From the NCBI GenBank assembly GCA_021771715.1, contig JAETOO010000004.1, positions 62,001 to 126,000 on the forward strand: 64,000 nt of DNA. Direction: 5' to 3'. Positions 35,446 through 57,809 of the stretch are shown piece by piece. This DNA is from Oscillospiraceae bacterium. Lineage in GTDB: Bacteria > Bacillota > Clostridia > Lachnospirales > Lachnospiraceae. The position numbers and the translations under genes were made by a program. Position 1 is the first letter of the stretch. Every line of letters begins with the position of its first letter. The notes beneath the pieces are model-generated. The model saw only the letters and a list, made by a program, of their open reading frames with translations. It was not told the origin of the DNA and made no database searches.

Positions 35446-36993
35446 TCACTGGATCCCGGTGTTGCTGATGATCTGGTTGCTGATCGTCTGCACCGTCTCG
35501 GACGGCGTGTAGTCTGTGTCGCCGAACAGATACGCGTGCAGCTGTTTCACGTTCGCCGCCAGGTTCACCGGCACGACGCAGTCTCCCGCATCGACGTTGG
35601 CCGCCAGCTTGTCATACGGGAAGCCCGACGTGTCCGCGATCGAGTATTTTCCCGCATTGGCTGCGAGGCCGAGGAGCTCTGTGTTGCTCAGGCTCGTATT
35701 CACGTAGTCCAGCATGGAATTTACGAGACCCGCAAGCCCGGTGATCCCCTGCTGCTTTGCCTTGTCGAACACCTTCTCCAGGACGATCCGCTGCCGCTCG
35801 GTGCGCTTGTAGTCCCAGCCCTCGGTGTAGCGGATCCGGCAGTACGCCATCGCCTGGATGCCGGAGAGATGCTGCATCCCTGACCCGCCTACGTCCTCGT
35901 AGGACACGCCCGTCACCTGCGACGTCTCCACGAGGTACGCGTTCAGCCATTTTACCTCCTCGTCCGTCAGCTCGATGTCGACCCCGCCCAGCAGGTCCAC
36001 GACCTTGATCACCGCGTTGAAATCCACGGTCACAAAGTCCGTGATGTCGAGATCGAGATTTTTGTTCAGCATATTGACCGCGCGCTCTGCGCCGCCGCCC
36101 GCGTACGCGGAGTTGGCCTTGCTGTAATGTCCGTCGTACACATCCAGATACGTGTCGCGGTACACCGAGGCCAGCTTAATCTCACCGGTCTTCTCATTGA
36201 TGCTGCACACCATGATCGTGTCGCTGTTCGTCCCGCTCTCAAGCTGCCCCTCGCGCGAATCGACGCCGAACAGCGCGATATTCCGGTAACCCTTCTTGGC
36301 GATCCCGCTGTTGACAATGACATCCTTCAGGTTCACACGCCCCATCCGGTTGAGCTGCGCAAACGCAAACAGCCCGAGCGACACGATCAGCAACAGCACA
36401 ATCTCGAGCGCAAAAATCAGCTTTCTGTGCTTCTTCTTTTTTTTCTTCTTCTTTTTTCCGCCGTCCGGCTCTCCGTAATAATCCGGTCCGCCCTGCCCCT
36501 GATAATAACCCGGATCGCCGTTCTGATAGTAATTCGGATCGCCCTGGCCCTGATAGTAGCCCTGGCCGCCGTTCTGGTAGTAGTTCGGATCGCCCTGGCC
36601 TTGGTAATAGCCCTGGCCGCCGTTCTGGTAGCTGTTCGGATCGCCCTGCCCCTGGTAATAGCCCTGCCCCTGCCGGCGTGTCTGCCCTCCGTTCTGATAG
36701 TACCTCGGATCCCCCTGGTAGCGCGTCTGGCCCTCGTTCGCGTAGTAGCCCGGTTCCCCCTGACTCTGCCCACTTCGCCCCTGCCCCGGATAGCGCCCCT
36801 GGCCGCCGTTCACATAGCGCCCCGCCTCACCCTGGCTCTGTCGGCGCGCCCGGCCGCCGTTCTCATAGCCGCCCGGCTCCCCCCGGCCCCGCTTGCTCCC
36901 GTTCGCGTAATACCCCGGATCTCCTTGTCCCCTCTGCTTCCCCTGACTCCCGAAAGCACTCTGCCCGGCACGTTTTCTCTTTTCTTCCATCAT
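35446..36993 (-). CDS. LytR-CpsA-Psr (LCP) family wall-glycan attachment enzyme with prion-like N-terminus
   Basis: About 515 residues. The cytoplasmic N-terminus (~190 residues) is unusual: rich in Gly, Gln, Asn and Tyr, with 17-residue repeats (YYQGQGDPNYYQNGGQG), ending in a run of lysines next to a single membrane anchor (LIFALEIVLLLIVSLGLFAFA). The external LCP domain follows (IALFGVDSREGQLESGTNSDTIMV with catalytic Asp/Arg, and YCRIRYTEGWDYKRTERQR). LCP enzymes move glycans from undecaprenyl phosphate to peptidoglycan or proteins. The start is one of two adjacent ATGs after AAAGGGTGAGA. Its position in the locus fits attachment of the exported polymer. Confidence 0.92.
   Translation of the reverse strand: MMEEKRKRAGQSAFGSQGKQRGQGDPGYYANGSKRGRGEPGGYENGGRARRQSQGEAGRYVNGGQGRYPGQGRSGQSQGEPGYYANEGQTRYQGDPRYYQNGGQTRRQGQGYYQGQGDPNSYQNGGQGYYQGQGDPNYYQNGGQGYYQGQGDPNYYQNGDPGYYQGQGGPDYYGEPDGGKKKKKKKKKHRKLIFALEIVLLLIVSLGLFAFAQLNRMGRVNLKDVIVNSGIAKKGYRNIALFGVDSREGQLESGTNSDTIMVCSINEKTGEIKLASVYRDTYLDVYDGHYSKANSAYAGGGAERAVNMLNKNLDLDITDFVTVDFNAVIKVVDLLGGVDIELTDEEVKWLNAYLVETSQVTGVSYEDVGGSGMQHLSGIQAMAYCRIRYTEGWDYKRTERQRIVLEKVFDKAKQQGITGLAGLVNSMLDYVNTSLSNTELLGLAANAGKYSIADTSGFPYDKLAANVDAGDCVVPVNLAANVKQLHAYLFGDTDYTPSETVQTISNQIISNTGIQ
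36482..36690 (-). repeat. 51-bp tandem repeats in the LCP gene
   Basis: TTCGGATC marks copies at 36533, 36584 and 36635, with partial copies on both sides. Each unit encodes 17 residues of the Gly/Gln/Tyr-rich tail. Reading frame is kept. Confidence 0.85.
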
Positions 36994-37150
36994 TCTCACC
37001 CTTTCTCTCCGACATCCCCTCACGCCGGATCATTTTGAATCTTACCATTTACGACCATATCACGATGTCGGGGCCCAAGATCATGTCTCTTCACGCAAGC
37101 ATGAAACGCATCCCCCTTTGCCCCTGATATCATATCCTTCCACTAAACAG

Positions 37151-37319: not shown

Positions 37320-38720
37320 TCAATACGCATTTTTATTTACAAACCCCTTAAACACAGTCAGAAACAGAATCTTAATATCCAGCCCGACCGTCCAGTTCTC
37401 AATATAGTAAAGATCACAGTCAATCCTCTTTCGGATCGACGTGTTCCCCCGATATCCATTGACCTGCGCCCACCCCGTCATGCCCGGGCGCACCTGGTGC
37501 TTGACCATGTACCGCGGAATCTCCTCCCGGAACTTCTCCACAAACTGCGGGCGCTCCGGCCGCGGCCCCACCAGACTCATATCCCCCTTGAGCACGTTGA
37601 ACAGCTGCGGCAGCTCATCAATGCTCGTCTTCCGGATGAACCTGCCGACCGGCGTGACGCGCGGGTCATTTTTGACGGTCCACCCCCGCTTCTCGTCCGC
37701 CTGCGTCTGCACCTCCATCGACCGGAACTTGTACATCCGAAACGGCTCGTTGTGCAGCCCCACGCGCTCCTGCGTGAAGATCAGCGGTCCAGGCGAGGTC
37801 AGCTTGATCAGCGCGGCAGTCACGAGCATCACCGGGGAGAACAGCACAATGCAGACCAGCGAGCCCGCCACGTCCATCACACGCTTTACCATCATATTGA
37901 ACGTATTAGAGAGCGGAACGTGACGGATGTTGATGACGGCAAGCCCCAAAAGATCCTCCGTATACGGTTTCGTCGGGATAATTTTGCTGTAATCCGGGAT
38001 AAATTTCGTGTGCACGCCGGCCTTCTCGCACATCGCGACGATCTGCTCGAGCTTGTAATACTCCGACAGTCCGAGCGTGATCGCGATCTCGTCCGGGTGA
38101 TTGACCTCCAGAAGCGCGCTCAACGTGTTCGTCGCGCCGAGCACCTCGACATTCTTGTACAGCGTGCCGCCCGGCACATTGTCGTCGAGGATTCCCATGA
38201 TTTTGTAGCCCCACTGGGGATTCTGCGTGATCCGGTCGACGTACTCCTCCGCCGCGCGGCTGTAGCCGACCAGTATGATATGCTTCAGATTCAGCCCGAT
38301 CTTGCGGATCCGCATCAGCACGATCCGGACCACATTCCGCTCGATAAAGGTAAAGATCACATTCAGGATCAGGAACAGACCGATCTGCAGACGGGACACG
38401 TCCGGCAGCCGCAGCATAAAGTACGCCGCCATCAGCACCAGCCCGCCGACGCAGTTCGCCTTTACAATATTGCTGCCCTCGAGGCGGCGCCCCTGCACCC
38501 GCTTGGGCGTGTAGAGATTGCACGCATAGTACAGTAGCAAAAAAAATGGTACCAGTACCACAAGTACCATCATGTAAAATTCCGGCGGCAGGACACCGAC
38601 CTCCTTGCCCTCAACGCTGCGCAGCATCGCAAACCACGCAGTCAGATAGGACAAGATGATCATGAGGCCGTCCAGCACCACCTGGAGCCGATTAAAATAT
38701 CTCTGATTGTCCTTAATCAA
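37320..38720 (-). CDS. Undecaprenyl-phosphate sugar phosphotransferase (polyprenyl glycosylphosphotransferase)
   Basis: 466 residues of the WbaP/CpsE type. Four or so N-terminal membrane segments, a CoA-binding-like domain (IILVGYSRAAEEYVDRI), a re-entrant membrane helix before the catalytic domain (MVKRVMDVAGSLVCIVLF), then YKFRSMEVQT, the acidic pair region DELPQLFNVLKGDMSLVGPRPE and RPGMTGWAQVNGYRG. It starts glycan assembly by moving a sugar phosphate to undecaprenyl phosphate. The start is TTG 38720 after GAGGTGAAGGGTA. Confidence 0.95.
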   Translation of the reverse strand: MIKDNQRYFNRLQVVLDGLMIILSYLTAWFAMLRSVEGKEVGVLPPEFYMMVLVVLVPFFLLLYYACNLYTPKRVQGRRLEGSNIVKANCVGGLVLMAAYFMLRLPDVSRLQIGLFLILNVIFTFIERNVVRIVLMRIRKIGLNLKHIILVGYSRAAEEYVDRITQNPQWGYKIMGILDDNVPGGTLYKNVEVLGATNTLSALLEVNHPDEIAITLGLSEYYKLEQIVAMCEKAGVHTKFIPDYSKIIPTKPYTEDLLGLAVINIRHVPLSNTFNMMVKRVMDVAGSLVCIVLFSPVMLVTAALIKLTSPGPLIFTQERVGLHNEPFRMYKFRSMEVQTQADEKRGWTVKNDPRVTPVGRFIRKTSIDELPQLFNVLKGDMSLVGPRPERPQFVEKFREEIPRYMVKHQVRPGMTGWAQVNGYRGNTSIRKRIDCDLYYIENWTVGLDIKILFLTVFKGFVNKNAY

Positions 38721-41909: not shown

Positions 41910-43061
41910 CTACCGGCAGTTCAGCGCCGGATCGTGCAGGATCTCGATCAGGCTGTCCGTGACGTACTTGACTTCCTCCATCGTCAGACTGTAGTACATC
42001 GGCAGGCGCATGAGGCGCTCGCTCTCCTTCGTCGTGTAAACGTCCTCCCCGGAGAAGCTGCCGTACTTCTGCCCGGCGGGGGAGATGTGGAGCGGGATGT
42101 AGTGGAAAACGCACTGGATCCCCTTCTCCTCCTTCATCCGCCGGATCACCTCCGTGCGTGTCTCGAGATCGCGCAGCTTTATGTAGAACATGTGTCCGTT
42201 GTGCACCGCATAGTCCGGGACAACCGGACGCTCGATCAATCCCGCCTCCGCAAGCGGCAGAAGATGCTCATAGTAGTAGTCATAAATCTGACGGCGCTTC
42301 TCATTGATCTTATCCATCTCGAGAAGCTGCGCATACAGATACGCCGCATTCATATCGCTTGGCAGATAGGACGAGCCGTAGTTGACCCAAGTGTATTTGT
42401 CGATCTGTCCGCGGAAGAACTTGCTCCGGTTGGTCCCCTTCTCGCGCAGGATCTCCGCGCGCTCCACGTAAGCGTCGTCCTGAAACAGCAGCGCGCCGCC
42501 CTCACCCATCGTGTAGTTCTTCGTCTCGTGGAAGCTGTAGCAGCCAAAATCGCCGATTGTGCCCAGCGCGCGCCCTTTGTAATACGCGTGAACGCCCTGC
42601 GCCGCATCCTCGACCACCTTCAGCCCGTGCTTCTTCGCGATCGCCATGATCGTATCCATCTCGCATGCGACGCCCGCATAGTGGACCGGGACAATCACCC
42701 TGGTCCGGTCGGTGATCGCCGCCTCGATCTTCGTCTCGTCAATATTCATCGTCTCGGGGTGCACATCGACGTAGACAATCTTCGCCCCCTGCAATACGAA
42801 AGCGTCCGCCGTCGACACGAAGGTGTAGGACGGCATAATAACCTCGTCGCCCGGCTGCAGGTCACACAGAAAGGCCGCCATCTCCAGCGCATGTGTGCAC
42901 GAGGTCGTCAGAAGAACGTGCTTCGTGTGAAACCGCTCCTGCATCAGCTGGGAGCACTTTTTTGTGAACGGGCCGTCACCGCAAAGCTTTGCGTTTGCGA
43001 TCGCCTGCTGCATATAGCCAAGCTCAGTCCCCAGAAACGGGGCGCGGTTAAAATCTATCAT
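41910..43061 (-). CDS. rffA: DegT/DnrJ/EryC1/StrS aminotransferase, WecE/RffA-like
   Basis: 383 residues, PLP enzyme that aminates nucleotide keto-sugars. DFNRAPFLGTELGYMQQAI at the N-terminus and CGDGPFTKKC are characteristic of dTDP-4-amino-4,6-dideoxygalactose transaminase. Catalytic lysine is in SFHETKNYTMGEGGALL and the PLP-contact acid in VVEDAAQGVHA. It would supply an amino-dideoxy sugar (dTDP-Fuc4N or similar) to the glycan. No matching acetyltransferase or dTDP-sugar synthesis gene is in the window. The start follows GAGGAGATCGATT. Confidence 0.9.
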   Translation of the reverse strand: MIDFNRAPFLGTELGYMQQAIANAKLCGDGPFTKKCSQLMQERFHTKHVLLTTSCTHALEMAAFLCDLQPGDEVIMPSYTFVSTADAFVLQGAKIVYVDVHPETMNIDETKIEAAITDRTRVIVPVHYAGVACEMDTIMAIAKKHGLKVVEDAAQGVHAYYKGRALGTIGDFGCYSFHETKNYTMGEGGALLFQDDAYVERAEILREKGTNRSKFFRGQIDKYTWVNYGSSYLPSDMNAAYLYAQLLEMDKINEKRRQIYDYYYEHLLPLAEAGLIERPVVPDYAVHNGHMFYIKLRDLETRTEVIRRMKEEKGIQCVFHYIPLHISPAGQKYGSFSGEDVYTTKESERLMRLPMYYSLTMEEVKYVTDSLIEILHDPALNCR

Positions 43062-45158: not shown

Positions 45159-45246
45159 ATCGCTCTCCCACGCTTTCTCGGTCTCATGCAAATTTCACCA
45201 CTGCTATTTCTCACAGCCCCAAACAAACCTCAACACCGCTGCCCTC

Positions 45247-47727
45247 TCACAGCTTCAGCGAAAAGTCCGCCTTGTCCAGCGACAGATTCGGGTTGTAGTA
45301 CGGATCGCCCGCCTTGACCTGGTCGCCCCAGCGCTCCAGAAACTGCGCCACCTCGCGGTTAAAGCGCTCGATCTTCTCCTGCGTGTTCTCAAGGCCCCGC
45401 GACTTCGACTCATAGTGATAGAGCTCCGCGCGCGGGTTGTAGACGATCAGATAGCCCGCCTGCCGCACCTTCATGCAGAAGTCAATGTCGTTGAACGCGA
45501 CGCGAAGGTCCGCCGACATGCCGCCGACCTCCCGGTACACGGACGCTTTGACGAGCATGCAGGCCGCCGTCACCGCGCTGTAGTCCTGCGCGCAGATGAT
45601 CCGCGAAAAATAGCCGTTATCGCCGCGCTTCTGCCCGATGAACGCGTGGCCCGCGATCCCGCCGAAGCCCAGCACCACACCCGCGTGCTGGATGATATCG
45701 TCCTCATAATACAGCCGCGCGCCGACGATCCCGACATCCGCTCTCTGGCAATAGCCGAGCAGCTGCCGCAGGCAGTCCGGGCGAATGATCTCCGTATCGT
45801 TGTTCAGCAGCAGATAGTAGTCCCCGGAGGCGTACTGCGCGCCGAAATTGTTGATATCCGAAAAATTGAACGCCCCCTTGTAATAGACGACCTTCACCTT
45901 CGGATTCTCGCGCTTCAGCTGCTCGTAGCCCGCAAACGTCTCCGGCTCCGTGCTGTTGTTTTCAATCACAATATACTCATAATTCCGGTAATCCGATTTC
46001 TCCTCGATCGACCGGATGCACGTCCTCAGATCCTCCAGGTGATCCTTGTTCGGGATCAGGATCGAGATCAGCGGCTCCCCGGTAATCTCGTAGTCGCTCT
46101 CGTACAGCCCCGGGTACTCGCCCATCCGCGCGCGGGCCGGGATTCCCAGCCTGTTATAGTGCGCCTGGATTGCGCGGCAGCCGGCCTCAAACGCGTACCG
46201 CTTGCTCTCCGGGTTCTCCGCCGTCGACTCCTGATGCGTCCGCCAGTGATAGAGAATCTTCGGGATGTGGCAGATCTGCGCCGGCGTCGTCTGCTCCGTG
46301 CAGCGCAGCACAAAATCGTAGTCCTGCGCCCCGTCAAACGACGGATCCAGCAGTCCGACCCGCTCCTGCAGCTCCTTCTTCACGACCACGAGATGGCAGA
46401 AATAATTCATGCTGCAGAGCAGATCCGGGTTGTAGTCCGACTTGAAATGCGGCTGGAAGTACCGCCTGCCCGCGCCGTCCACCTTGTCCTCGTCCGAGTA
46501 GATCAGCTCCGCATCGGGGCGCTCGTTCAGAAGTCGCACGCACTCGAACAGCGCATCCGGCGAGAGCACGTCGTCGTGGTCGCAAAACGCGAGAAATTCC
46601 CCCGTCGCGGCAGCGATCGCAGCATTCGTGTTCTCGGCAATCCGCAGCGGTCTCTCACTGCGAACCACGCGGATGACGCCGCATGCCGCAGTCCGCCCCA
46701 GAGGACCTGCCTCCGCCACAATCCGCTCGAGCAGCTCCGCAAGCGGCGAGTCCGGCCCGCTGCCGTCCGAGAGCACCAGCTCCCAGTTCCGGTACGTCTG
46801 CCGCTGCACCGACCGGATGAGTTCACGCAGATACCGCTCCGGCGTCCGGTAGAGCGGCACCACGATGCTGATCTTCGGCTCCCAGGCAAGCTGCGCCGCC
46901 CGCTGCCGCTCCAGCTCGCCCCTCGTGACGCCGTATTTCCTGCGCCACCGCTCATAGCTGATCGAGTCCACGCCCAGCACGACATCCGACACGCGCTTCG
47001 TGAACTGGCGAAAGCCCTTGCGCTTCAGGTAGAGGATGCTCTTTTTGCAGATCACATCGAGCCCTTCCTTGCCCGAGAGCATCTTTTTGCAGTTTATGAC
47101 ATAGAGCGCTTTCTTGCCGTTTCCTTTCAACGCCAGCCGCAGATGGTTCTCCTGCGGCTTCGCGAACGTCACCTCAAAGCCGCGCGTCTCCTCGATCGCA
47201 GCCTCCGGGAACTCCCCGAGAATGTCGACGCGGCTCGCGAGCACGCACTCGGTCTCCAGCTCCTCTCCGTGCCCGTCCAGCAGCCCGATCTGCGCACGGC
47301 CGCAGCCCATGTACCAGCCGCGCAGCTGATACCGCCCGTCCGGCAGCTCCCGCAGCCCCTCGACCCAGGACTCCAGATGGCGGCCGAGCTTCGCCAGCTC
47401 CCGCGCGGTCGCATGGTAAATGCAGGTGCGCGAATCGCCGTCCACATGGTAGAGACGAAGCACGTGGAACCCGCCCGAATCAAGCTCGCCCGCAAGCGGT
47501 ACCCGCAGAAAATATTCCACCATCACGTTCGTCTTGTAGCGGAGGTATTTCTTCGTCACCTCAACCCCTCGCTGCGTCTGCACACTCAGCTCGATGCGCC
47601 TGCCGTCCAGCTCCGCCTCAAACTGCCCCGCGCCGTCCTGATCCCCCTCGAACCAGCCCTGCACGACCAGCGTATCCGCCTGCCTCGTATCAAACCGAAT
47701 CCTCTCCCGGTTAAACCTTGCCTTCAT
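45247..47727 (-). CDS. Large multidomain glycosyltransferase (beta-sandwich domains plus two GT2 domains)
   Basis: 826 residues. The N-terminal ~250 residues contain two beta-rich units with GWFEGDQDG and RGWYMGCGRAQIG, probably accessory carbohydrate-binding or scaffold domains. GT2 domain one starts near residue 295 (ISIVVPLYRTPERYLREL, FCDHDDVLSPDAL, SDEDKVD) and GT2 domain two near residue 565 (ISILIPNKDHLEDLRTC, LLLNNDTEII, AFNDIDFCMKVRQAGY). It ends DPYYNPNLSLDKADFSLKL. Such enzymes polymerise two alternating linkages. The start follows GGGGGAAATGAG. Confidence 0.88.
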   Translation of the reverse strand: MKARFNRERIRFDTRQADTLVVQGWFEGDQDGAGQFEAELDGRRIELSVQTQRGVEVTKKYLRYKTNVMVEYFLRVPLAGELDSGGFHVLRLYHVDGDSRTCIYHATARELAKLGRHLESWVEGLRELPDGRYQLRGWYMGCGRAQIGLLDGHGEELETECVLASRVDILGEFPEAAIEETRGFEVTFAKPQENHLRLALKGNGKKALYVINCKKMLSGKEGLDVICKKSILYLKRKGFRQFTKRVSDVVLGVDSISYERWRRKYGVTRGELERQRAAQLAWEPKISIVVPLYRTPERYLRELIRSVQRQTYRNWELVLSDGSGPDSPLAELLERIVAEAGPLGRTAACGVIRVVRSERPLRIAENTNAAIAAATGEFLAFCDHDDVLSPDALFECVRLLNERPDAELIYSDEDKVDGAGRRYFQPHFKSDYNPDLLCSMNYFCHLVVVKKELQERVGLLDPSFDGAQDYDFVLRCTEQTTPAQICHIPKILYHWRTHQESTAENPESKRYAFEAGCRAIQAHYNRLGIPARARMGEYPGLYESDYEITGEPLISILIPNKDHLEDLRTCIRSIEEKSDYRNYEYIVIENNSTEPETFAGYEQLKRENPKVKVVYYKGAFNFSDINNFGAQYASGDYYLLLNNDTEIIRPDCLRQLLGYCQRADVGIVGARLYYEDDIIQHAGVVLGFGGIAGHAFIGQKRGDNGYFSRIICAQDYSAVTAACMLVKASVYREVGGMSADLRVAFNDIDFCMKVRQAGYLIVYNPRAELYHYESKSRGLENTQEKIERFNREVAQFLERWGDQVKAGDPYYNPNLSLDKADFSLKL

Positions 47728-47922: not shown

Positions 47923-50043
47923 TCATCTGTCATGGCTGCCTGCAGCTTTGGCCAGCTCTTCCGACGCTTCCGCCTCCGTCCGCAGCGAGCAGTCCGTCTT
48001 TTTCCGTGTAAAGTTCGGATTGTAGTACGGATCGCCCTTCGAGAGCACCTCGCTCCAGCGCTCGGCGAACAGGGCTGCCTCCGAATGCAGCCGCGCCTGT
48101 TTCTCCTGCGTGTCCTCCGGCCCGCGCGACTTCGACTCATAGTGCGTCAGCTCCGCGTACGGGGTGAAGAGCACATGTAAACCCATATTTTGCAATTTCA
48201 GGCAGTAGTCGATGTCATTGTACGCCACCGCGAGCGCTTCCTCCATGCCGCCGACTTGCTCATAGACCGCTTTTTTCGTCATCATGCACGCCGCAGTCAC
48301 CGCGCTGTAGTCCTGGACGGAGACCAGACGCCCGGCATAGCCGTCCTTATCCCCCGCCGAGCCGATCAGCAGATGGCTCGCCACGCCGCACAGCCCGAGC
48401 ACCACACCCGCATGCTGGATCGTGCCGTCCGGATAATACAGCTTCGCGCCCACCGCCCCAACCTCGCGCTTCTGGCACAGGCCGAGCAGCTCCTCAATCC
48501 ACGAAGGACTTCGGACCTCCGTGTCATTGTTCAGGAGGATCACGTACTCCCCGTCCGCGCGCGGCACCGCGAAATTGTGGATCGCAGAGAAATTGAACGG
48601 CCCCGCATACCGGAGAATCCGCACCGTTCTGCCCGCGTCCGCCTCCAGACTCTGATAGTACGATTCCGTCTCCGGCTCCACGCTGTTATTCTCGATCACC
48701 ACGATCTCATAGTTGTCGTACGTCGTCTTCTCCCAGATGGAGGTCAGGCAGCGCCGCAGGTCCTCCACATGGTCCTTGTTCGGAATCAGAATCGACACGA
48801 GCGGATGTCCCTGCAGCGCGAACCGCGTCCGATAGCGCCCGCGCAGTGAGGTGCGCTCCGTCACCGCCTCGATCCCAACGCGGCGATAGTGTGCCTCGAC
48901 CGCCCTTCGCCCCGCCTCAAACGCATACTCCTTGCTCGCCGGGTTGCCCGCCGTCGAAGCAGGATGCGTCCGCCAGTGGTAGAGCACCTTTGGGATATGG
49001 CGGATCCTCCTCGCCTGCTCTGCGCAGCGCAGGATAAAATCATAGTCCTGCGCCCCGTCGTACGCGGGGTCGAGCAGCCCGACGCGTCCGAGCAGCTCGC
49101 GCCGCACCGCGAACAGGTGACAGATATAGTTGTTGCAGCACAGCAGCTCCATACTGAAATCCGGCTTAAAATGAGGTCCGAAGTACGCGTTCCCGGCGCG
49201 GTTGATCTTGTCCTCATCGGTGTAGATCACGTCCGTCTCCGGATCCTCGTTGAGCAGGGACGCCATCTCGTAGAGCGCATCCGCCTCCAGAATGTCATCG
49301 TGGTCCGCAAACACGACAAACTCGCCGCGCGCCATCCGAAGCGCCGCATTCGTGTTCTCCGAGATTCCCCTGTTCTCCTTCAGTCTGTGGTAGCGCACGC
49401 GGCCATCCCTGCCATAGTGCTTCCGCAAAAACGTGTGCACCCGCTCGTCCGTGCTCCCGTCCGCCAGGCACAGCTCCAGCTTCCGGTACGTCTGATTCAG
49501 CACCGAATCGACGATCTCCCTTAAAAACGCTTCCGGCGTGTTGTACAGCGGAATCACAATGCTGAACAGCGGCTCCCGCTCAAACCGATGGCGGCGCTGC
49601 TCCTTTTGCCGCCTCGCATCCGGCATCTGCCTGCGCATCCAGAGGTCGTAGTCCTCCTGCTCACCGCACGGCCGCCCCAGACGCAGCTGCCGGAAACGCT
49701 TCCACGCCCCTGCGTTCACCGGAATCCGCACACGCTGCACCCGCGCGCCGTTTGTGAAGGTCAGATAGACCGACGGAGTGTTCACCACCGCCCGGTCGAT
49801 CAGAATGTGGATCCCGCTCTCGTAATCCGCCGCCTTCCCGACGGCAGCGTTCACATCCGCGCGCACCAGACGCTCGATATAGACGTGCAGCTCCTGCCCG
49901 TCTCCGTCCACGACCGAGACGCTTGTCCGCTCCTTCGGATCGAGATCTGAGACCCAGCCGCGGATCATGATATTCCCGTACTGGCTCTCAATCCGGTCAA
50001 TGTGATACAGGACGCACTGCGCCCCCTCCCAGAATCTCCTCAC
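47923..50043 (-). CDS. Large multidomain glycosyltransferase (beta-sandwich plus two GT2 domains)
   Basis: 706 residues. One N-terminal beta-rich domain (YGNIMIRGWVSDLDPKER, then IERLVRADVNAAVG), GT2 domain one from residue ~155 (FSIVIPLYNTPEAFLREI, FADHDDILEADAL, YTDEDK) and GT2 domain two from ~425 (VSILIPNKDHVEDLRRC, ILLNNDTEV, AYNDIDYCLKLQNMG). It is a close paralogue of the 826-residue enzyme next to it, which suggests gene duplication. The start is GTG 50043, with only a weak ribosome site, so the true start is uncertain. Its 3' end seeds 34-bp repeats. Confidence 0.86.
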   Translation of the reverse strand: MRRFWEGAQCVLYHIDRIESQYGNIMIRGWVSDLDPKERTSVSVVDGDGQELHVYIERLVRADVNAAVGKAADYESGIHILIDRAVVNTPSVYLTFTNGARVQRVRIPVNAGAWKRFRQLRLGRPCGEQEDYDLWMRRQMPDARRQKEQRRHRFEREPLFSIVIPLYNTPEAFLREIVDSVLNQTYRKLELCLADGSTDERVHTFLRKHYGRDGRVRYHRLKENRGISENTNAALRMARGEFVVFADHDDILEADALYEMASLLNEDPETDVIYTDEDKINRAGNAYFGPHFKPDFSMELLCCNNYICHLFAVRRELLGRVGLLDPAYDGAQDYDFILRCAEQARRIRHIPKVLYHWRTHPASTAGNPASKEYAFEAGRRAVEAHYRRVGIEAVTERTSLRGRYRTRFALQGHPLVSILIPNKDHVEDLRRCLTSIWEKTTYDNYEIVVIENNSVEPETESYYQSLEADAGRTVRILRYAGPFNFSAIHNFAVPRADGEYVILLNNDTEVRSPSWIEELLGLCQKREVGAVGAKLYYPDGTIQHAGVVLGLCGVASHLLIGSAGDKDGYAGRLVSVQDYSAVTAACMMTKKAVYEQVGGMEEALAVAYNDIDYCLKLQNMGLHVLFTPYAELTHYESKSRGPEDTQEKQARLHSEAALFAERWSEVLSKGDPYYNPNFTRKKTDCSLRTEAEASEELAKAAGSHDR

Positions 50044-50157: not shown

Positions 50158-51405
50158 TCACGCCTCCGGCTTCAGCTTCCGGTAGGCCTTCCACACCTTC
50201 GTCTGCTCCATCCACTGAATGCGCCCGCACTGGTTCAGCAGCACCTCGCGCGTCAGCCCGCCGACCGGCTCCGCGCGGTATGTGATCTCGACCGCCCCGC
50301 TCCCCGGAAGCGCATCTATGAGCAGCTGCGGATCCTCCGTATCAAAAATCAGATCGCCGTTTGGCGCGGCCGCCCCGTTCGTCCGGAACTCGAGCGTTTT
50401 CCCCTCCTGCGCGAGCCGCTCCACCCGCACGACGCTGCGCGCGGCGCACGGATCAATCCGCAGGGCCTTCGTCCCCTCCGGCAGCTCAATCCGCAGGGAA
50501 ACCCTGCCCTCCGGCTCGACCTGATACCGCCTGAAATTCCAGGTGCCGTAACCTCGCCCGTCGTCAAAATAAACCTCCACCGTGCGCATCGCCCGCAGCC
50601 TGCGGTTCTGCTTCTGCACAAGCGGCTGCACCGCAATCACGCCCTCCGAGATGTCCCCGTACAGCGCCCGCAGCGGTTTGTAGTCCCCGAGCATGTACGC
50701 CTGAAAATGGCGCTCCATCTTCTCAAACTGCGCGCGCTCCTCCTCGTTGATGTCGAACAGCTCATACAGGTTCTGGTGCACCAGCACATCCCGCTTCGTG
50801 TTTCCCAGGATATAGTAGTACAGGCAGCGGTACCGCAGATACCGCACCGGCACCGGAAACGCGAACGTCCACTCGTAGTCAATCAGCTCGTAGCCCTCGT
50901 CCGTGTGGATCGCGTTCGAAAAGATCATGTCAATATCCGAGATGCGGCGGCACGGCTGCGGCCGCGAAAATTCCACCGCGCCAAACACCTTCCGGAACTC
51001 CTCTGTCTCCTCAAAGGCCACTGCACCCTCGTAAAACATCGCAAAATACTGGCGGATCGCCCGCAGCAGCTCCTCCGCCTTTCCTTTTTTCAGAAGCCCG
51101 TCCAGCTCCTCCTCCAGCGTACAGCCCTCCTTGTACGGAAAGCAGACCGCCACAGCCGCCCGGCCCTTCGCCTCCTGCTCCCCGTCTGCCTCACTCAGCT
51201 CACACGAATTGACGCGCAGCCCGGTTCCGTCCAGATCCTCGACAAGCAGGCGGTATTTTTCCGCGATGCTCCGAACATGCGCGGCTGCCTCCCGGAAAGC
51301 AGCCAGCTTCCGAACGGTCTTCCGCCCCTGCTCATCCACGGCGATCTCCGTGCGGATGCAAAACTCTTTTCTGCGCTCATTGGAATATTTTGTATATATG
51401 ACCAT
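50158..51405 (-). CDS. Kinase-like protein with C-terminal beta-rich domain (WbdD-kinase analogue)
   Basis: 415 residues. The central region has a kinase-type catalytic loop SDIDMIFSNAI (D...N) and a metal-binding segment ELIDYEWTFAFPVP in place of DFG, as in aminoglycoside/LPS-kinase-like folds. Residues ~270-400 form a beta-rich domain ending in an Arg/Lys tail. The gene starts one base after the methyltransferase stop (TAG inside its ribosome site), so the two are coupled. A methyltransferase and kinase beside an ABC glycan exporter recall WbdD, which methylates and phosphorylates the end of the E. coli O9a chain. The function is inferred from context, not proven. Confidence 0.6.
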   Translation of the reverse strand: MVIYTKYSNERRKEFCIRTEIAVDEQGRKTVRKLAAFREAAAHVRSIAEKYRLLVEDLDGTGLRVNSCELSEADGEQEAKGRAAVAVCFPYKEGCTLEEELDGLLKKGKAEELLRAIRQYFAMFYEGAVAFEETEEFRKVFGAVEFSRPQPCRRISDIDMIFSNAIHTDEGYELIDYEWTFAFPVPVRYLRYRCLYYYILGNTKRDVLVHQNLYELFDINEEERAQFEKMERHFQAYMLGDYKPLRALYGDISEGVIAVQPLVQKQNRRLRAMRTVEVYFDDGRGYGTWNFRRYQVEPEGRVSLRIELPEGTKALRIDPCAARSVVRVERLAQEGKTLEFRTNGAAAPNGDLIFDTEDPQLLIDALPGSGAVEITYRAEPVGGLTREVLLNQCGRIQWMEQTKVWKAYRKLKPEA

Positions 51406-51410
51406 CTATC

Positions 51411-52331
51411 CTACCCCCGCACAATTACCAGAAATGAATTTGAGAACTCCGGAAACATCCCGCCCTCGATCAGGGAATCGTACACGCGCTCCTCCTGGAA
51501 CACCTGCATCCGCTCACGGTCAAAATTCTGCCGGTTCAGGTTCAGCTCCCCTTTTTTCGGCAGATACCGGTCCGAGTAGATCCGGTCCACAAACTTATAG
51601 TCCGGGTACGGATAGTAGAATTCCACCTGCTCCATCCCGGCCTCCGCGAACACCCCCGTCAGCTCCTTTTTCGAGAAGGTCCGCACGTAGTTGGTCGTCG
51701 GATAGCCCTCGATCCCCTCAAAGTAGACCCCCGTATGGTCCTCCGTCGCGCCCGCCCAGTACTTCAGCCCCAGCCGGTTCTCGATCGCAATCACGATCCG
51801 CCCGCCGGGCGCCAGATGACGCCGGATCCGCACGAGGTAGTCGACAAACGGGTTGTCGGAGTGGATCGAGAACTGCGCATACTCGAACACGCCGATCAGC
51901 GTAATCAGGTCGTACTGTTCGGTGAGATTCTCCTCTATGTCCTGGAAGTTCCCGACGAGAATGTTCAGATTGCCGCAGTCCCTGTGGCGGTACGCGTTGA
52001 TGAGACAGCGCTTCCGCGACAAGTCGACACAGGTGACCTGCGCCCCCTTCCTGCAGAGCGCCCCCGTAATCGCTCCCGGCCCGGCCCCGATCTCCAGGAC
52101 ACGCTCCCGCCCGGTCATCGGCAGCCAGCTGATAATATTCTCCCGCAGGTAGGAAAAATGATACAGAACCGGCCAGCTCTTTTTCTCTGCAATCACCTGC
52201 CCATACGCGTCCGGCTCACACGTCCTGGCGATCTCCAGCATCTCATCCTCCACCGTGCCGTCCGTGTAGCCGTCCTCCCCCGGATAAAACCGATAGTCAA
52301 GTACCACCTTCCCGATCTGCTCGTTCTCCAT
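51411..52331 (-). CDS. Class I SAM-dependent methyltransferase
   Basis: 306 residues. SAM motif I VLEIGAGPGAITGAL (residues ~85-100), an acidic motif II VTCVDLSRKRC, then YDLITLIGVFEYAQ and LAPGGRIVIAIEN. ATG 52331 follows GAGGAGGAGCGT; ATG 52352 has no site. The gene directly precedes the kinase-like gene and follows the Wzt ATPase. The likely target is the glycan or its terminal residue (inference from context). Confidence 0.88.
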   Translation of the reverse strand: MENEQIGKVVLDYRFYPGEDGYTDGTVEDEMLEIARTCEPDAYGQVIAEKKSWPVLYHFSYLRENIISWLPMTGRERVLEIGAGPGAITGALCRKGAQVTCVDLSRKRCLINAYRHRDCGNLNILVGNFQDIEENLTEQYDLITLIGVFEYAQFSIHSDNPFVDYLVRIRRHLAPGGRIVIAIENRLGLKYWAGATEDHTGVYFEGIEGYPTTNYVRTFSKKELTGVFAEAGMEQVEFYYPYPDYKFVDRIYSDRYLPKKGELNLNRQNFDRERMQVFQEERVYDSLIEGGMFPEFSNSFLVIVRG

Positions 52332-52380
52332 ACGCTCCTCCTCAAAATCCATTTTCTTATGTACGCCGACAGGTGCACAG

Positions 52381-53661
52381 TCAGATTTCCGACTCCCTCT
52401 CTACCTTGATAACGGAGTTCATGTCGTAGAATCCCACCGTGTTCTTGGCCGACACCACCACCAGGCTGCACGCGTCGTACAGTCTGTGGTACACGACAAA
52501 GTCACCGCCCCGGTAGCCCGTCAGGCCGAACGAGATCAGATACTCGCCGCCCTGCAGATCTGCCCTTTGCGTGTAGGTGACGACAAACGTATCCCCCTCC
52601 TCGCCGGCCTCCGTCGTGATCCGCTCGAACATCGTATTCGTCCCTGTGATCTCGGTCCCGCGCATATCCTTGATCGTGAACGCGAAGATCGGGTCCTCGA
52701 TCCGCTCGTGGAACCGCACCCGCACCTTCATCGTGAACTCGCTGCCCTTCTCGATCGTGTTCGTCGGCAGCCCCTTCGCATCGAGCACCATAAACCCGAG
52801 CATCTCCGCGCGCTTGTCCCCGTACTCCAGCGCCGCGGGGTTCATCTCAAACGGCGTAATCCACCCGGCCTTCTTCACCACTTCACCCTTGGACACGCTC
52901 TCCTTCTCCTCGCTGCCCGGCCCCTGGCCGACGAGCAGCTGCTTGTAAAGGTCCACCATCTCCTTGGGCGCTCCCGTCGCTATGACCCGCCCGTGGTCCA
53001 GCAAAATCACACGGTCACAGTACCGGCTGATGCTGCCCAGATCGTGGCTGACGAACAGGATCGTCTTTCCTTCCTTCTTGAACTCCTCGAATTTCCGGTA
53101 GCATTTTGCCTGGAAAAAGACGTCCCCGACCGACAGAGCCTCGTCGACGATCAGGATCTCCGGGTCAATATTGATCGCAACCGCAAAAGCCAGCCGGACA
53201 AACATACCGCTCGAGTATGTCTTGACCGGCTGGTTCACAAACTCACCGATATCCGCAAAGGCCAGAATCGCGTCCAGCCTCTCGTCAATCTCCTGCTCCG
53301 AAAAACCGATCATCGTCCCCTGCAGGTAGACGTTCTCGATTCCGGTATACTCCATGTTGAAGCCCGCGCCCAGCTCCAGGAGCGCAGAAATCCTCCCGTC
53401 CACGGTGACCTCTCCTGCGGTCGGGTTCAGCACCCCGGTGATAATCTTGAGAATCGTCGACTTCCCGGCCCCGTTCGTCCCGATGATGCCGATCGTCTCT
53501 CCCCTGGCCACCTCAAAATTCACATCCGTCAGGGCGTAATGCTCCCGGTAGCACTTTTTCCGCGTCAGCCCCAGGCTCTCCCTCAGTCGGTCGGAGGGCC
53601 TGTCGTAGAGCTTATACATTTTACTCACATGATCCACCCGGATCGCAGCTTTCTTCTCCAT
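52381..53661 (-). CDS. wzt: ABC transporter ATPase, Wzt type with C-terminal sugar-binding domain
   Basis: 426 residues. N-terminal ABC domain: Walker A GTNGAGKST, signature YSSGMFVRLAFA, Walker B ILIVDEALSVGD, H-loop VSHD. From residue ~270 there is a beta-sandwich extension (GFMVLDAKGLPTNTIEKGSEF, ADLQGGEYLISFGLTG) like the Wzt_C domain that reads the modified end of the polymer in E. coli O8/O9a. Transporters without this domain, such as teichoic acid TagH or O2a Wzt, do not need a terminal cap. It works with the permease encoded upstream. Confidence 0.92.
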   Translation of the reverse strand: MEKKAAIRVDHVSKMYKLYDRPSDRLRESLGLTRKKCYREHYALTDVNFEVARGETIGIIGTNGAGKSTILKIITGVLNPTAGEVTVDGRISALLELGAGFNMEYTGIENVYLQGTMIGFSEQEIDERLDAILAFADIGEFVNQPVKTYSSGMFVRLAFAVAINIDPEILIVDEALSVGDVFFQAKCYRKFEEFKKEGKTILFVSHDLGSISRYCDRVILLDHGRVIATGAPKEMVDLYKQLLVGQGPGSEEKESVSKGEVVKKAGWITPFEMNPAALEYGDKRAEMLGFMVLDAKGLPTNTIEKGSEFTMKVRVRFHERIEDPIFAFTIKDMRGTEITGTNTMFERITTEAGEEGDTFVVTYTQRADLQGGEYLISFGLTGYRGGDFVVYHRLYDACSLVVVSAKNTVGFYDMNSVIKVERESEI

Positions 53662-53745
53662 ATCCTATCCTCATCCCCAGCGGGCCCGGCAGCCCTTTTT
53701 TGCATGCAGCCCATGCGGCGCATTTCTCATCCGGACTGTGCGCTT

Positions 53746-54558
53746 CTACAGTACATCCGCGAAATGCACTCTGAGACGTTTAAAGACTGTGCCTCCCAGC
53801 CAGAGAGACCCGGCCACAAAGCACCAGAAGTACAGCGTCCACAGCGGCCTCTCCCAGAACCAGTTTTTGTAGATAAATGCATCGCGATAGCCCGTCACTA
53901 CGTAATAGATCGGATTCAGCTTCAGAATCCTGTGTATCACCGGGTAATTGACCAGCTTGTCCTGGGCCACCCACATGATCGGTGTCAGCCAGACGCCGAT
54001 CTGCAGCCCGATATTGATCATCTGTGAGAGATCGCGGAAAAAGATCACAACCGCACATGTCGCATACGACAGCCCCAGAATCAGCAGGCACAGCCCCGCC
54101 CAGTAATACACAAGCTGCAGATAATACAGATCCGGGAAATACCCGTAAAAGCAGTACAGAACCGTGATAAAGCACACAAAAAACAGGTGGACAAACGCCG
54201 CCGAGATAATCTTCACGATCGGCAGCACGCTGATATTAAAGACGACCTTCTTGACAAGATAGCTGTACTCCAGCATCGCGTTTGTGCCTCCGGTCAGCCC
54301 GTCCTGGAAGAAAAACCACGGCACAATCCCCGCGATCAGATAGAGCACGAACGGCACCGGCAGCGTGTCCTCCCCGCCGCGGAAGCCAACCTCAAAGACG
54401 AACCAGTACACGAGCACCGTCACCACCGGCTGGATGAACGCCCAGACAATCCCGAGGTAAGAGCCCGCATACTTCGTGCGGAAGTCATTTTTTGCAAGTT
54501 TATAGATCATTTTCCGGCTTCTCGCGATCTCCGCCGGAAGTGATGTCTGCTTTTTCAC
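53746..54558 (-). CDS. wzm: ABC transporter permease, Wzm/TagG type
   Basis: 270 residues, six membrane segments, ABC-2 fold with the N-terminal interface helix KMIYKLAKNDFRTKYAGSYLGIVWAF. It forms the channel for export of a lipid-linked glycan. The start is GTG 54558, preceded by AAGGAGATACGGT; no good ATG exists and the longer in-frame reading would run into the promoter. First gene of the polysaccharide operon. Confidence 0.93.
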   Translation of the reverse strand: MKKQTSLPAEIARSRKMIYKLAKNDFRTKYAGSYLGIVWAFIQPVVTVLVYWFVFEVGFRGGEDTLPVPFVLYLIAGIVPWFFFQDGLTGGTNAMLEYSYLVKKVVFNISVLPIVKIISAAFVHLFFVCFITVLYCFYGYFPDLYYLQLVYYWAGLCLLILGLSYATCAVVIFFRDLSQMINIGLQIGVWLTPIMWVAQDKLVNYPVIHRILKLNPIYYVVTGYRDAFIYKNWFWERPLWTLYFWCFVAGSLWLGGTVFKRLRVHFADVL

Positions 54559-54941: not shown

Positions 54942-56450
54942 CTACATCTGCGGTACCGGCGTCGGTCTGCTGCTATCCCAGACTGCGTTGACATCGAAGA
55001 GGTCGCTGACCATATCCGGGTTGTAGTACATGCGGTAGCCGTCGAGATTGCGCCGGCCCTGACGCATGTAGTCATTGCCAAACTGCACCCAGCACTTGGA
55101 CGAGTCGACGTTGCAGAAGATGTTAAAGCCCTTACTCTTCATATACGAGAAAAATGCATTTTCGCTCGTGTACGGCTGCCAGTCGCCGATATCGGCCCCG
55201 AACGCGAAGATAATCACGTCCGTATTTCCAACCACCGTCGCCACATTGTCCAGCCAGCGCTGCGTATCCTGCTGTGTCCCGTCAAACCCTTTCACCTGCG
55301 GTGCAATATGCCCCCACGTATGGCTTGCAAATTCCCAGCCCGACGCTTTCATCGCATTTGCCACCGCAGTCGCCTGGTCGACTTCATTCTGCCATGCCGC
55401 CTCATCAAAATCGGGGTGCGCGTCGAAAAACTTCTGCTGGTACTCCGTCACGCGGCCCGGCTCTTTCGTGCGGTACACCTCGTCCGTGCGATACCCGAGC
55501 ACACCCTCGTAGCCGGTCAGCGCAATAATGCCCTTGTGCCCGTGGTAGGAGAAATCCGGATGCTCCTTCACAAAGGTGTCAATCCACGGAACCATGTCGT
55601 AATCTCCGACCGAGATGCTTCCGTCAGCCTCGACGTACGTGTTCTTCACATCCCCGTTTTCGTCGACGATCAGCTTCTGCGCGAAACCGTCACCGTCCAT
55701 ATAGTGGTAATAGCTCACGTCATCCTGCGACAGCACAAACGGTGTCTTGCCCGGCGGCAGCAGAATCTCTCCGCGCGACACGGTGCCGTCCTCGTTGACC
55801 TTGCACATATCATGCAGGCTGACCATCACATAGCCCTTCTCATACATCGACCGGATGATTCCCTCAAACTCACTCATCGTCGTCATGACCTGATTATAGC
55901 CGCCCTCTTTTGCATCTCCGTCGAAGGCCTTCGCCGTATCCTTGATCATCGTGTGAAAAAATACATGTGTGATCTGGTCGACCGGATACGCCGTACACGT
56001 CTGCCGCGTCGCCTCGTATCCTGCCGCTGCGTTCTGCATCTCCTGGCTCCCTGTGTACAGAGAAGAGCTCTTCAGATACTCGATCGCACCCGTGTAGTCA
56101 TACTGCGCCGCCATCTGATCTGCCTGCGCAATCAGCCCCTCAACGCCCGTGCTCCCCGCAGTGCCTGATACGGAAGCCGCGCCTTGTGCTCCCTGCTGTC
56201 CGTCCGTCCCCTCTGCCGGATTCTGCCCCAGCGTTCCGGCATCTCCGGTCTCGTTTTTTACGAGCTGCTGCACCTGCTTCTTTTTGTTCGCGCGATACCG
56301 CTCAAAGCCCGGAATCGCCGCATCCTTGATCAGCACCACCGTTAAAAATACAACGATCAGCACGAGCAGGCAAATGATACACTTCATGATCAGCTCATTC
56401 TTTCGCCTTCTGGCACGCCGCTGCTGCAGCCGTGTCTCTCTTTCGTCCAT
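54942..56450 (-). CDS. Membrane-anchored polysaccharide deacetylase family protein
   Basis: 502 residues: basic cytoplasmic N-terminus, one membrane anchor (MKCIICLLVLIVVFLTVVLI), a disordered Gly/Ala/Gln linker (residues ~70-105), then a NodB-like domain. Metal-site motifs are FVLSQDDVSYYHY (Asp-Asp) and ASHTWGHIAPQ (HxxxH type), both consistent with a CE4 deacetylase, although the sequence is divergent at its C-terminus. It may deacetylate wall glycan or the exported polymer. It lies just upstream of the exporter operon with its own start after AGAAGGGT. Confidence 0.85.
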   Translation of the reverse strand: MDERETRLQQRRARRRKNELIMKCIICLLVLIVVFLTVVLIKDAAIPGFERYRANKKKQVQQLVKNETGDAGTLGQNPAEGTDGQQGAQGAASVSGTAGSTGVEGLIAQADQMAAQYDYTGAIEYLKSSSLYTGSQEMQNAAAGYEATRQTCTAYPVDQITHVFFHTMIKDTAKAFDGDAKEGGYNQVMTTMSEFEGIIRSMYEKGYVMVSLHDMCKVNEDGTVSRGEILLPPGKTPFVLSQDDVSYYHYMDGDGFAQKLIVDENGDVKNTYVEADGSISVGDYDMVPWIDTFVKEHPDFSYHGHKGIIALTGYEGVLGYRTDEVYRTKEPGRVTEYQQKFFDAHPDFDEAAWQNEVDQATAVANAMKASGWEFASHTWGHIAPQVKGFDGTQQDTQRWLDNVATVVGNTDVIIFAFGADIGDWQPYTSENAFFSYMKSKGFNIFCNVDSSKCWVQFGNDYMRQGRRNLDGYRMYYNPDMVSDLFDVNAVWDSSRPTPVPQM

Positions 56451-56644: not shown

Positions 56645-56960
56645 CCAGTCACCCTGTCACTCCGGTCTGCGATTGACCTGCTCCGTCACTCTGCGACTGA
56701 TCCGATACTCAAATCTGCGGCTGACCTGCTCCGTCACTCTGCGCCTAATCTGATGCTCAAGTCTGCGACTGGCCTGCTCCGTCACTCTGTGACTGACCTG
56801 TCCCGTCACTCTGCGGCTGACCTGCTCCGTCACTCTGCGGCTGGCCTGCTCCGTCACTCTGCGCCTGGCCTGCCCCGTCGCTCTGTGGCTGGCCTGCCTC
56901 GTCACTCTGCGACTGACCTGCTGCTCCTGCCTGCGATTGATCCGCTCCGTCACTCTGAGG
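56645..56960 (-). repeat. 24-bp repeats: coding tail plus decayed copies beyond the stop codon
   Basis: GACGGAGCAGGNCAG-type units encode the Gln/Ser/Asp/Gly C-terminal tail (QPQSDGAG). The same units continue for about 110 bases past the TGA at 56757, in the same frame but interrupted by TGA and TAG codons. This indicates that the tail was once longer. Confidence 0.8.
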
Positions 56961-57809
56961 CTGAGTTGACACTCCGGTCTGCGGCTGACCAAGCTGCCGC
57001 TCTGTCTGCGCTGCCATGCGCTCAGAGCCGGTCTGTTTTTTCCCGTTTCCGAGCACCAGCTCATAGATAATGGCCGCAATCAGCAAAACCACCAGCACAC
57101 CCAGAGCTCCCCAGAGCAGTCTGAGCCTTGCCTCATTTTCCTCTCCTCTGCGCCGCTGCGGCTCAGCCTGAAGCCGCGTTCGATCCGGCTCTGCCTCCCG
57201 GCGCGGTCTCCGGTTCCCCTGCTGCGCGCCCGTGTCAGATCTCCGCCCCGGCTGCGGTGCACCTTTCGCTGCGGTGCGCCGCTCCGCGCCCTCCGCAGAC
57301 ACCGCCGGTCGTTTCATGCCCTCCGATGCCACCGGCCGTTTCATGCCCTCCGATGCCGCCGGCCGTTTCATGCTTTCCGATGCCGTCGGCCGTTTCATGC
57401 CTTCCGATGCCATCGGCCGTTTCATGCCCTCCGATGCCGCCGGTCGTTTCATACTCTCCGATGCCACCGGTCGTTTCATGCCTTCCGATGCCGCCGGCCG
57501 TTTCATGCCCTCCGATGCCGTTTTCGACCGCTCCAGAGCTCTCCCCTGTCGCTCCGCTCTCCCCGCTGATCTCCCCGGTGCCTGATCCTCACGTCTCTGT
57601 GACCCGGCAGGCTGTTCCGGCATCCGGTTCTCGCGCCCCTGGAATCCTGAAGGCCGCTCCGGCGCCTGCTGCCCTTCGACCTGGCTTCTCCGCTCGGCGC
57701 CGTCCTTCTGTGTTGCTCCCGGCGCTCCGGTCAGCCCTCTGACCGAGCCGCGGCGTCTGCCGGTATCTTCCCCGTATATCGTAGGCCGTCCTGTACGTCT
57801 CTCCTCCAT
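56757..57809 (-). CDS. Repeat-rich single-span membrane protein of unknown function
   Basis: 350 residues, no family recognised. Residues 1-97 are Arg/Gly/Gln-rich. Residues 98-170 are eight 9-residue repeats MKRPxASE(G/S). Residues ~171-229 are highly basic. One membrane segment (LLWGALGVLVVLLIAAIIYELVL) follows. After it comes an external tail of 8-residue QPQSDGAG repeats. The layout (basic cytoplasmic part, one span, disordered outer tail) resembles wall or division scaffold proteins, but no function can be assigned. The start follows GGGGAGCAGGATT. Confidence 0.75.
   Translation of the reverse strand: MEERRTGRPTIYGEDTGRRRGSVRGLTGAPGATQKDGAERRSQVEGQQAPERPSGFQGRENRMPEQPAGSQRREDQAPGRSAGRAERQGRALERSKTASEGMKRPAASEGMKRPVASESMKRPAASEGMKRPMASEGMKRPTASESMKRPAASEGMKRPVASEGMKRPAVSAEGAERRTAAKGAPQPGRRSDTGAQQGNRRPRREAEPDRTRLQAEPQRRRGEENEARLRLLWGALGVLVVLLIAAIIYELVLGNGKKQTGSERMAAQTERQLGQPQTGVSTQPQSDGADQSQAGAAGQSQSDEAGQPQSDGAGQAQSDGAGQPQSDGAGQPQSDGTGQSQSDGAGQSQT
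57300..57518 (-). repeat. 27-bp tandem repeats encoding MKRPxASEG
   Basis: Eight units of 27 bp, recognised on the plus strand by GTTTCATGCCCTCCGATGCC with few changes. In frame. Confidence 0.88.

What the first reader, a model, noticed from the sequence alone, without database searches (positions are those of the whole stretch)
50158..54558. Gram-positive glycan exporter with a split WbdD-like capping pair
Order wzm, wzt with a C-terminal beta-sandwich, methyltransferase, kinase-like protein. In E. coli O8/O9a, WbdD (methyltransferase plus kinase in one chain) caps the polymer and the Wzt C-terminal domain reads the cap before export. Here the two activities would be separate coupled genes in a bacterium that presumably attaches the product to its wall through LCP. 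That would be chain-length control by capping in a Clostridium-type wall polymer.
Basis: partly seen in the sequence, partly recalled or inferred. Interest (0 to 1): 0.8.

Follow-up and report, generated by a model that had tools for sequence, protein, structure and literature searches.

The report
Gram-positive glycan end-capping enzyme pair
A gut-type bacterium carries, beside a sugar-chain exporter, two enzymes that very probably put a methylated phosphate on the tip of its cell-wall sugar chains as an export ticket, a trick known from the surface sugars of some Gram-negative bacteria.

The parts
53746..54558 (-). wzm, permease of the glycan exporter
   Evidence: NF050109 galactan exporter permease E 3.2e-12, below its cut-off; stands before wzt in most of the 40 loci shown
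52381..53661 (-). wzt, ATPase with C-terminal cap-reading domain
   Evidence: Wzt_C E 1e-41; A. aeolicus full-length Wzt E 4.4e-81; profile of the family hits E. coli O9 Wzt at 4.8e-112
52420..52830 (-). Wzt C-terminal carbohydrate-binding domain, residues 278-414
   Evidence: residue columns
52483..52485 (-). codon of Wzt Arg393, the position of A. aeolicus Trp362 that stacks on the methyl cap
   Evidence: alignment, codon checked; role of Trp362 from PMC9445017 section 9
51411..52352 (-). class I SAM methyltransferase, terminator half 1
   Evidence: Pfam; conserved residues in A2; aligned to the P. asturiensis O7-layout protein
50158..51405 (-). kinase-like protein, terminator half 2
50596..51405 (-). 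kinase domain, residues 1-270; Asp159 (catalytic), Asn164, Asp176
   Evidence: D159 in 114, N164 in 113, D176 in 116 of 116 distinct sequences, window included
50266..50583 (-). beta-sandwich after the kinase, residues 275-380, in the place of the Ig-like CBM of O7 ORF6
   Evidence: strands in the model; profile of this part in relatives; fold not compared on its own
47923..50043 (-). two-domain GT2 glycosyltransferase, probable polymerase part; such domains are fused to the kinase protein in some relatives
   Evidence: Pfam; kinase-GT fusions
45247..47727 (-). second two-domain GT2 glycosyltransferase
   Evidence: Pfam
41910..43061 (-). WecE-type dTDP-4-amino-4,6-dideoxyhexose transaminase
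   Evidence: TIGR02379 614.7 bits, above its cut-off
37320..38720 (-). WcaJ-type initiating undecaprenyl-phosphate sugar transferase
   Evidence: TIGR03023 505 bits, above its cut-off
35446..37023 (-). LCP-family glycopolymer transferase, candidate for wall attachment
   Evidence: TIGR00350 91 bits, above its cut-off

Best explanation
The locus makes a lipid-linked wall glycan whose growing, non-reducing end is closed by a two-enzyme terminator. The APH-type kinase (50158-51405) phosphorylates a hydroxyl of the last sugar. The methyltransferase (51411-52352) then methylates that phosphate. The C-domain of Wzt reads the methylphosphate tip, with Arg393 taking the place of the Trp that reads a plain methyl cap elsewhere, and only capped chains leave through Wzm/Wzt. 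An LCP enzyme then probably joins them to peptidoglycan. Shown here: gene order, predicted folds and motifs, homology to the O7-type terminator, repeated fusion of the two genes, near one-to-one pairing with one kind of Wzt_C, and the Arg signature. Inferred: the reaction, that it is terminal, the sugar, the export gating and the wall linkage.
Against: No assay and, in what I saw, no polymer structure bears on it. The O7 ORF6 sequence itself was not at hand; the link runs through a Pseudomonas protein. There the kinase part alone scores weakly (24.5 to 44 bits), the Citrobacter one hardly at all (2.5 bits), and the window's Lys33 faces His. One kinase-bearing system outside the family (L204) has His, not Arg, in Wzt. 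VIA rows for the fused model show only MT folds, WbdD not among the 50 shown. The 130-bit cut was set after seeing a gap between 121 and 134 bits. The relatives are not independent samples, and the control Wzt are divergent, so their column rests on one alignment method.
Confidence: 0.72

Rival explanations
1. The pair adds methylphosphate (or phosphate) to internal or side-chain sugars of every repeat, as a decoration, not as a chain terminator.
For: Phosphate substituents are reported in Gram-positive surface glycans (PMC12413058 passages). The kinase is fused in some relatives to polymerase-type GT2 domains. No ruler was found.
Against: Tight pairing with one kind of Wzt_C and with an Arg in the pocket that reads the chain end; the characterised relative of this enzyme type is a terminator (PMC11231755).
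Confidence: 0.12
2. The cap is a bare phosphate made by the kinase, and the methyltransferase acts on a sugar hydroxyl (or both act, on different atoms).
For: The MT is only generally similar to known MTs; split genes would allow separate acceptors.
Against: The two are one chain in 54 of 80 relatives, and the O7 enzyme was shown to methylate the phosphate.
Confidence: 0.09
3. A true WbdD-family terminator that split in two.
For: Same gene order as E. coli O9 (wzm, wzt, then the WbdD-type gene); WbdD is Foldseek's best match to the fused homologue; single fused homologues give weak blastp hits to WbdD in the MT part, lowest E 6e-5 in the part of the output shown, against one sequence.
Against: No sequence similarity of the kinase profile to WbdD (-1.4 bits; three of 20 shuffled WbdD and two of 18 other E. 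coli proteins score higher); TM-scores 0.19/0.29; far better match to the O7-layout Pseudomonas protein.
Confidence: 0.03
4. The two enzymes make a small molecule (for example a phosphocholine-like group) that is later attached to the glycan.
Against: Shared folds only; the GT fusions point to a glycan substrate; no nucleotidyl- or phosphocholine-transferase was recognised among the window proteins scanned, which are not all of them.
Confidence: 0.04

Closest known systems
Klebsiella pneumoniae O7 ORF6, N-terminal methyltransferase-kinase (PMC11231755)
   Same: MT, then an APH/AmiN-like kinase unlike WbdD's, then a beta-sandwich; same SAM-site residues; beside a Wzt with C-domain; compared here through the O7-layout protein of P. 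asturiensis
   Different: here two genes instead of one chain, no coiled-coil ruler found, not fused to the polymerase, Gram-positive host with an LCP gene
E. coli O9/O9a WbdD
   Same: order wzm, wzt, MT-kinase; MT before kinase; Wzt with Arg at the cap position
   Different: kinase of eukaryotic type in one chain with a coiled coil (PMC3482155); no sequence similarity of the kinase
Geobacillus stearothermophilus WsaE (S-layer glycan, PMC2943079, passages)
   Same: Gram-positive, Wzm/Wzt export, methylated chain end proposed as terminator
   Different: plain 2-O-methyl cap, no kinase mentioned; product goes to S-layer protein
Aquifex aeolicus Wzm/Wzt (PMC9445017)
   Same: nearest solved full-length Wzt by sequence; Asn313 of the cap site conserved
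   Different: reads a 3-O-methyl sugar with Trp362; Arg here

Membership tests
O7-type methyltransferase-kinase terminator | N-terminal MT with the SAM-site residues Y28, Y66, G91, G93, E112, Y158 | tested here: met
   window Y29, Y64, G89, G91, D110, Y158 aligned through P. asturiensis; Glu is Asp here
O7-type methyltransferase-kinase terminator | APH/AmiN-like kinase domain with catalytic Asp (D441 in O7) | tested here: met
O7-type methyltransferase-kinase terminator | Ig-like CBM after the kinase | tested here: inconclusive
   a beta-sandwich is predicted at 275-380 and profile A3 runs on through it into the P. asturiensis protein, but its fold was not compared on its own
O7-type methyltransferase-kinase terminator | extended coiled coil (molecular ruler) after the terminator | tested here: not met
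   the model ends in helices of 11 and 17 residues at pLDDT about 65-73; a crude heptad scan marks WbdD 557-594 and P. asturiensis 721-748 but nothing in the window's tail; it also marks window residues 31-59 inside the kinase and misses the Citrobacter tail
O7-type methyltransferase-kinase terminator | both activities in one chain | tested here: not met
   two genes 5 bases apart here; fused in 54 of 80 relatives
O7-type methyltransferase-kinase terminator | phosphorylates and then methylates the non-reducing end | not testable with these tools
   needs assay or NMR
WbdD family | sequence-related eukaryote-like kinase domain | tested here: not met
   profile A1 against WbdD of E. coli HS: -1.4 bits, three of 20 shuffles higher
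WbdD family | MT domain N-terminal to a kinase domain | tested here: met
   in gene order and in the fused homologue; Foldseek best match 4azt, E 1.4e-9
cap-reading Wzm/Wzt exporter | Wzt C-terminal carbohydrate-binding domain | tested here: met
   PF14524 E 1e-41
cap-reading Wzm/Wzt exporter | conserved cap-site Asn (A. aeolicus Asn313) | tested here: met
   Asn in 110 of 110; also in 16 of 18 Wzt without the kinase nearby, so not specific
WsaE-type terminator | methyltransferase without a kinase | tested here: not met
   kinase present and conserved; that WsaE lacks one is taken from PMC2943079 passages

The most novel reading that the evidence does not exclude
About half of Lachnospiraceae genera end their wall glycans with an unreported methylphosphate, made by an O7-type kinase-methyltransferase whose two parts have split or fused many times. 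The exporter reads it with one Arg, so the chemistry of a glycan cap (methyl: Trp; methylphosphate: Arg) can be read from a Wzt sequence. In these Gram-positives the cap works as an export ticket without a molecular ruler.
Probability: 0.55. Interest if true: 0.77.

Novelty: new variant of a known kind. Interest (0 to 1): 0.64.

Why it matters
It would bring the cap-and-export logic of Gram-negative O antigens, in its phosphate form, to the cell wall of common gut bacteria, and add a charged chain end that a recent review of gut surface glycans does not seem to mention (no word beginning with 'methyl' in its main text). The Arg/Trp switch would make cap chemistry predictable from genome sequence and testable by binding assays on isolated Wzt domains.

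Tried and rejected
WbdD kinship of the kinase was tested with the E. coli HS protein and rejected. Single-sequence and profile searches of the PDB with the kinase gave nothing of note. WbdD did not appear among the rows shown for the kinase alone, nor among VIA's rows for the fused homologue; that absence proves nothing. The beta-sandwich as a domain shared with the neighbouring GT2 protein 47923-50043: no hit. Plasmid searches found only two Gram-negative relatives, so the O7 ORF6 sequence itself was never compared. An apparent exception to the Arg rule, L214 (Arg but no kinase found by profile), dissolved when the next gene was read by eye: kinase-like motifs, a beta-sandwich-like stretch and a coiled coil. 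L204 remains an exception: kinase-like motifs by eye, His in Wzt. In one search, 7 of 14 fetched loci gave a Wzt with C-domain; the other 7 were not scored. Of the E. coli exporters listed I took one or two of each kind (O9, O99, O8, O60); the RfbB hits were not examined.

My first count of 112 Wzt had taken in the Pseudomonas and Citrobacter Wzt a second time; one search gives 110 (the window and 109 of 120 loci; 11 loci had no full-length Wzt scored; one of the 109, L098, ends before the place of the kinase). Four loci stand in both the 40 and the 80. The heptad scan is home-made and crude. The tree is a quick one.

Literature seen: PMC11231755 (abstract; sections 11 and 13, first part each; passages), PMC3482155 (abstract; section 4, first part), PMC9445017 (section 9 whole; passages), PMC2943079 and PMC11127046 (passages), PMC12413058 (section 12 whole; passages); of all other papers only search listings. 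The survey that could already list such loci (Mann 2019, Glycobiology) and the O9a Wzt binding paper are not held.

Full report
What is there. On the minus strand the window holds, in order of transcription, wzm (53746-54558), wzt (52381-53661), a class I methyltransferase (51411-52352) and a 415-aa protein without any Pfam or NCBIfam match (50158-51405), the last two 5 bases apart. Downstream follow several GT2 glycosyltransferases, a WecE-type transaminase, a WcaJ-type initiating transferase and an LCP protein. The window's nearest methyltransferase among the tree rows is 78% identical and from a Lachnospiraceae MAG. The own genome shows one copy of the 415-aa protein.

It belongs with the methyltransferase. 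Of 150 family genomes 81 had a hit in the first search. I fetched 40 wider loci of these, the 29 best and 11 others. There the two are one chain in 23 (two of these also carry GT domains), the kinase is fused to GT domains alone in 5, and neither applies in 12. It has the kinase fused in 54, next in 25, and missing in 1 that ends at the contig edge. A Wzt with C-domain stands directly before the methyltransferase in 74 of 80; two of the other six start at a contig edge. A quick tree of 113 methyltransferases needs at least 14 changes between fused and split, 11 on well-supported branches. Across the phylum 18 of 398 genomes match the fused profile.

Which terminator. WbdD, taken from E. coli HS, shows no sequence similarity to the kinase profile (-1.4 bits; three of 20 shuffled copies and two of 18 other E. 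coli proteins score higher) and only a trace in the methyltransferase (7.0 bits, with one shuffle at 7.4). The fused homologue L061 has WbdD as its best Foldseek match (4azt, E 1.4e-9, 439 columns), but with TM-scores of 0.19 and 0.29, so the order of domains is shared rather than their packing. In 2024 a second methylphosphate terminator was described, Klebsiella O7 ORF6: methyltransferase, an unannotated AmiN-like kinase of 223 residues, an Ig-like module, a coiled coil and two GT2 domains (PMC11231755). A plasmid protein of Pseudomonas asturiensis (1457 aa) has that layout as far as seen: our profiles for the first three parts, a weak heptad segment, and GT2-like sequence read by eye. It carries all six SAM-site residues of O7 at identical numbers, and its aligned catalytic Asp is two residues off. 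Our methyltransferase-kinase profile matches it from 22 to 664 with 260 bits. Most of that is methyltransferase: the kinase part alone gives 24.5 to 44 bits, and the Citrobacter relative is weaker still. So the pair is related to the O7 type and only works like WbdD.

The exporter is matched to it. In 150 genomes of the family, one per genus, Wzt_C hits fall into a strong group (134 to 151 bits) and a weaker one (121 and below). All 76 genomes with a strong hit also have the kinase, 4 have the kinase without it, and 70 have neither (Fisher 1.7e-38, though the cut was chosen after seeing the gap). In 73 of 76 the two lie within 8 kb on one strand, Wzt first in 72; the other three are on different contigs. 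Of 37 weaker hits one is near a kinase. Two genomes with a strong Wzt_C but no kinase in the first search (G072, G088) proved to have one in a long fusion when searched with the profile.

A cap code. In A. aeolicus Wzt, Trp362 stacks on the methyl of the cap, and changing it to Leu essentially abolishes binding (PMC9445017). In the alignment this residue is Arg393 in the window and Arg in 110 of 110 scored Wzt from these loci (106 distinct), in E. coli O9 and in the Pseudomonas and Citrobacter MT-kinase systems. Tested next on comparators not used in that alignment: E. coli O99, whose terminator aligns to WbdD along its whole length, has Arg. E. coli O8 and O60 have Trp; their methyltransferase genes (425 and 289 aa) match no kinase part of WbdD. 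Of the 37 weaker family hits 18 were fetched; none has Arg (13 Tyr, 4 Phe, 1 Trp), among them the second Wzt of the window's own genome. Outside the family four of five scorable Wzt have Arg; the fifth, L204, has His; two more of the family have Arg. O8-type caps are plain methyl and O9-type caps methylphosphate (PMC11231755 for K. pneumoniae O5 and O3; the equation O5 = O8 is recalled).

What is not shown. I found no assay or polymer structure that bears on it. The ruler that couples capping to chain length in WbdD and O7-type proteins was not found here, although a split Bacillota relative, L214, does seem to have a coiled coil when read by eye. Hence capping as an export ticket is favoured over length control. 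Wall attachment through LCP is inferred from one gene.

Novelty. Gram-positive methyl caps with Wzm/Wzt are known (WsaE). Ten literature searches in an open-licence library listed no paper on a Gram-positive methylphosphate cap; only the top rows were seen. The review of gut surface glycans PMC12413058 holds no word beginning with 'methyl'. The 2019 survey of terminators is not held and may list such loci, so priority cannot be claimed.

Noticed in passing
L033, L041, L102, L138, L140 (Wzm ORFs of 455-465 aa): Some Wzm carry an N-terminal extension of about 190 residues that weakly resembles the beta-sandwich after the kinase; L041 and L140 hold the same sequence.
   Followed up: partly
L189, L191, L194 and other loci of family genomes: Proteins matched in the beta-sandwich part but not the kinase part sit near 7 of 37 weaker Wzt_C hits; perhaps another kind of terminator with Tyr in Wzt.
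   Followed up: partly
G000:C52:72856-73257 (L193): The window's own genome has a second, longer Wzt (545 aa) with Tyr at the cap position and no kinase found in the 9 kb fetched.
   Followed up: partly
L205, L206, L207, L214: Other Bacillota families have methyltransferase proteins with a weak kinase match (L205, L207; L206 with GT2-type domains in the same 1555-aa chain), and one (L214) a split methyltransferase plus a kinase-like protein with a coiled coil.
   Followed up: partly
window 43218-45191 and 56757-57809: A membrane protein holds a Ser/Gly/Arg-rich repeated insert, and a nearby 350-aa protein is built of KRPAASEGM-like and SDGAGQ-like repeats.
   Followed up: no
window 54942-56450: A 502-aa protein with an N-terminal membrane-like stretch stands upstream of wzm; NCBIfam gave only weak collagen-like hits far below cut-off.
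   Followed up: no
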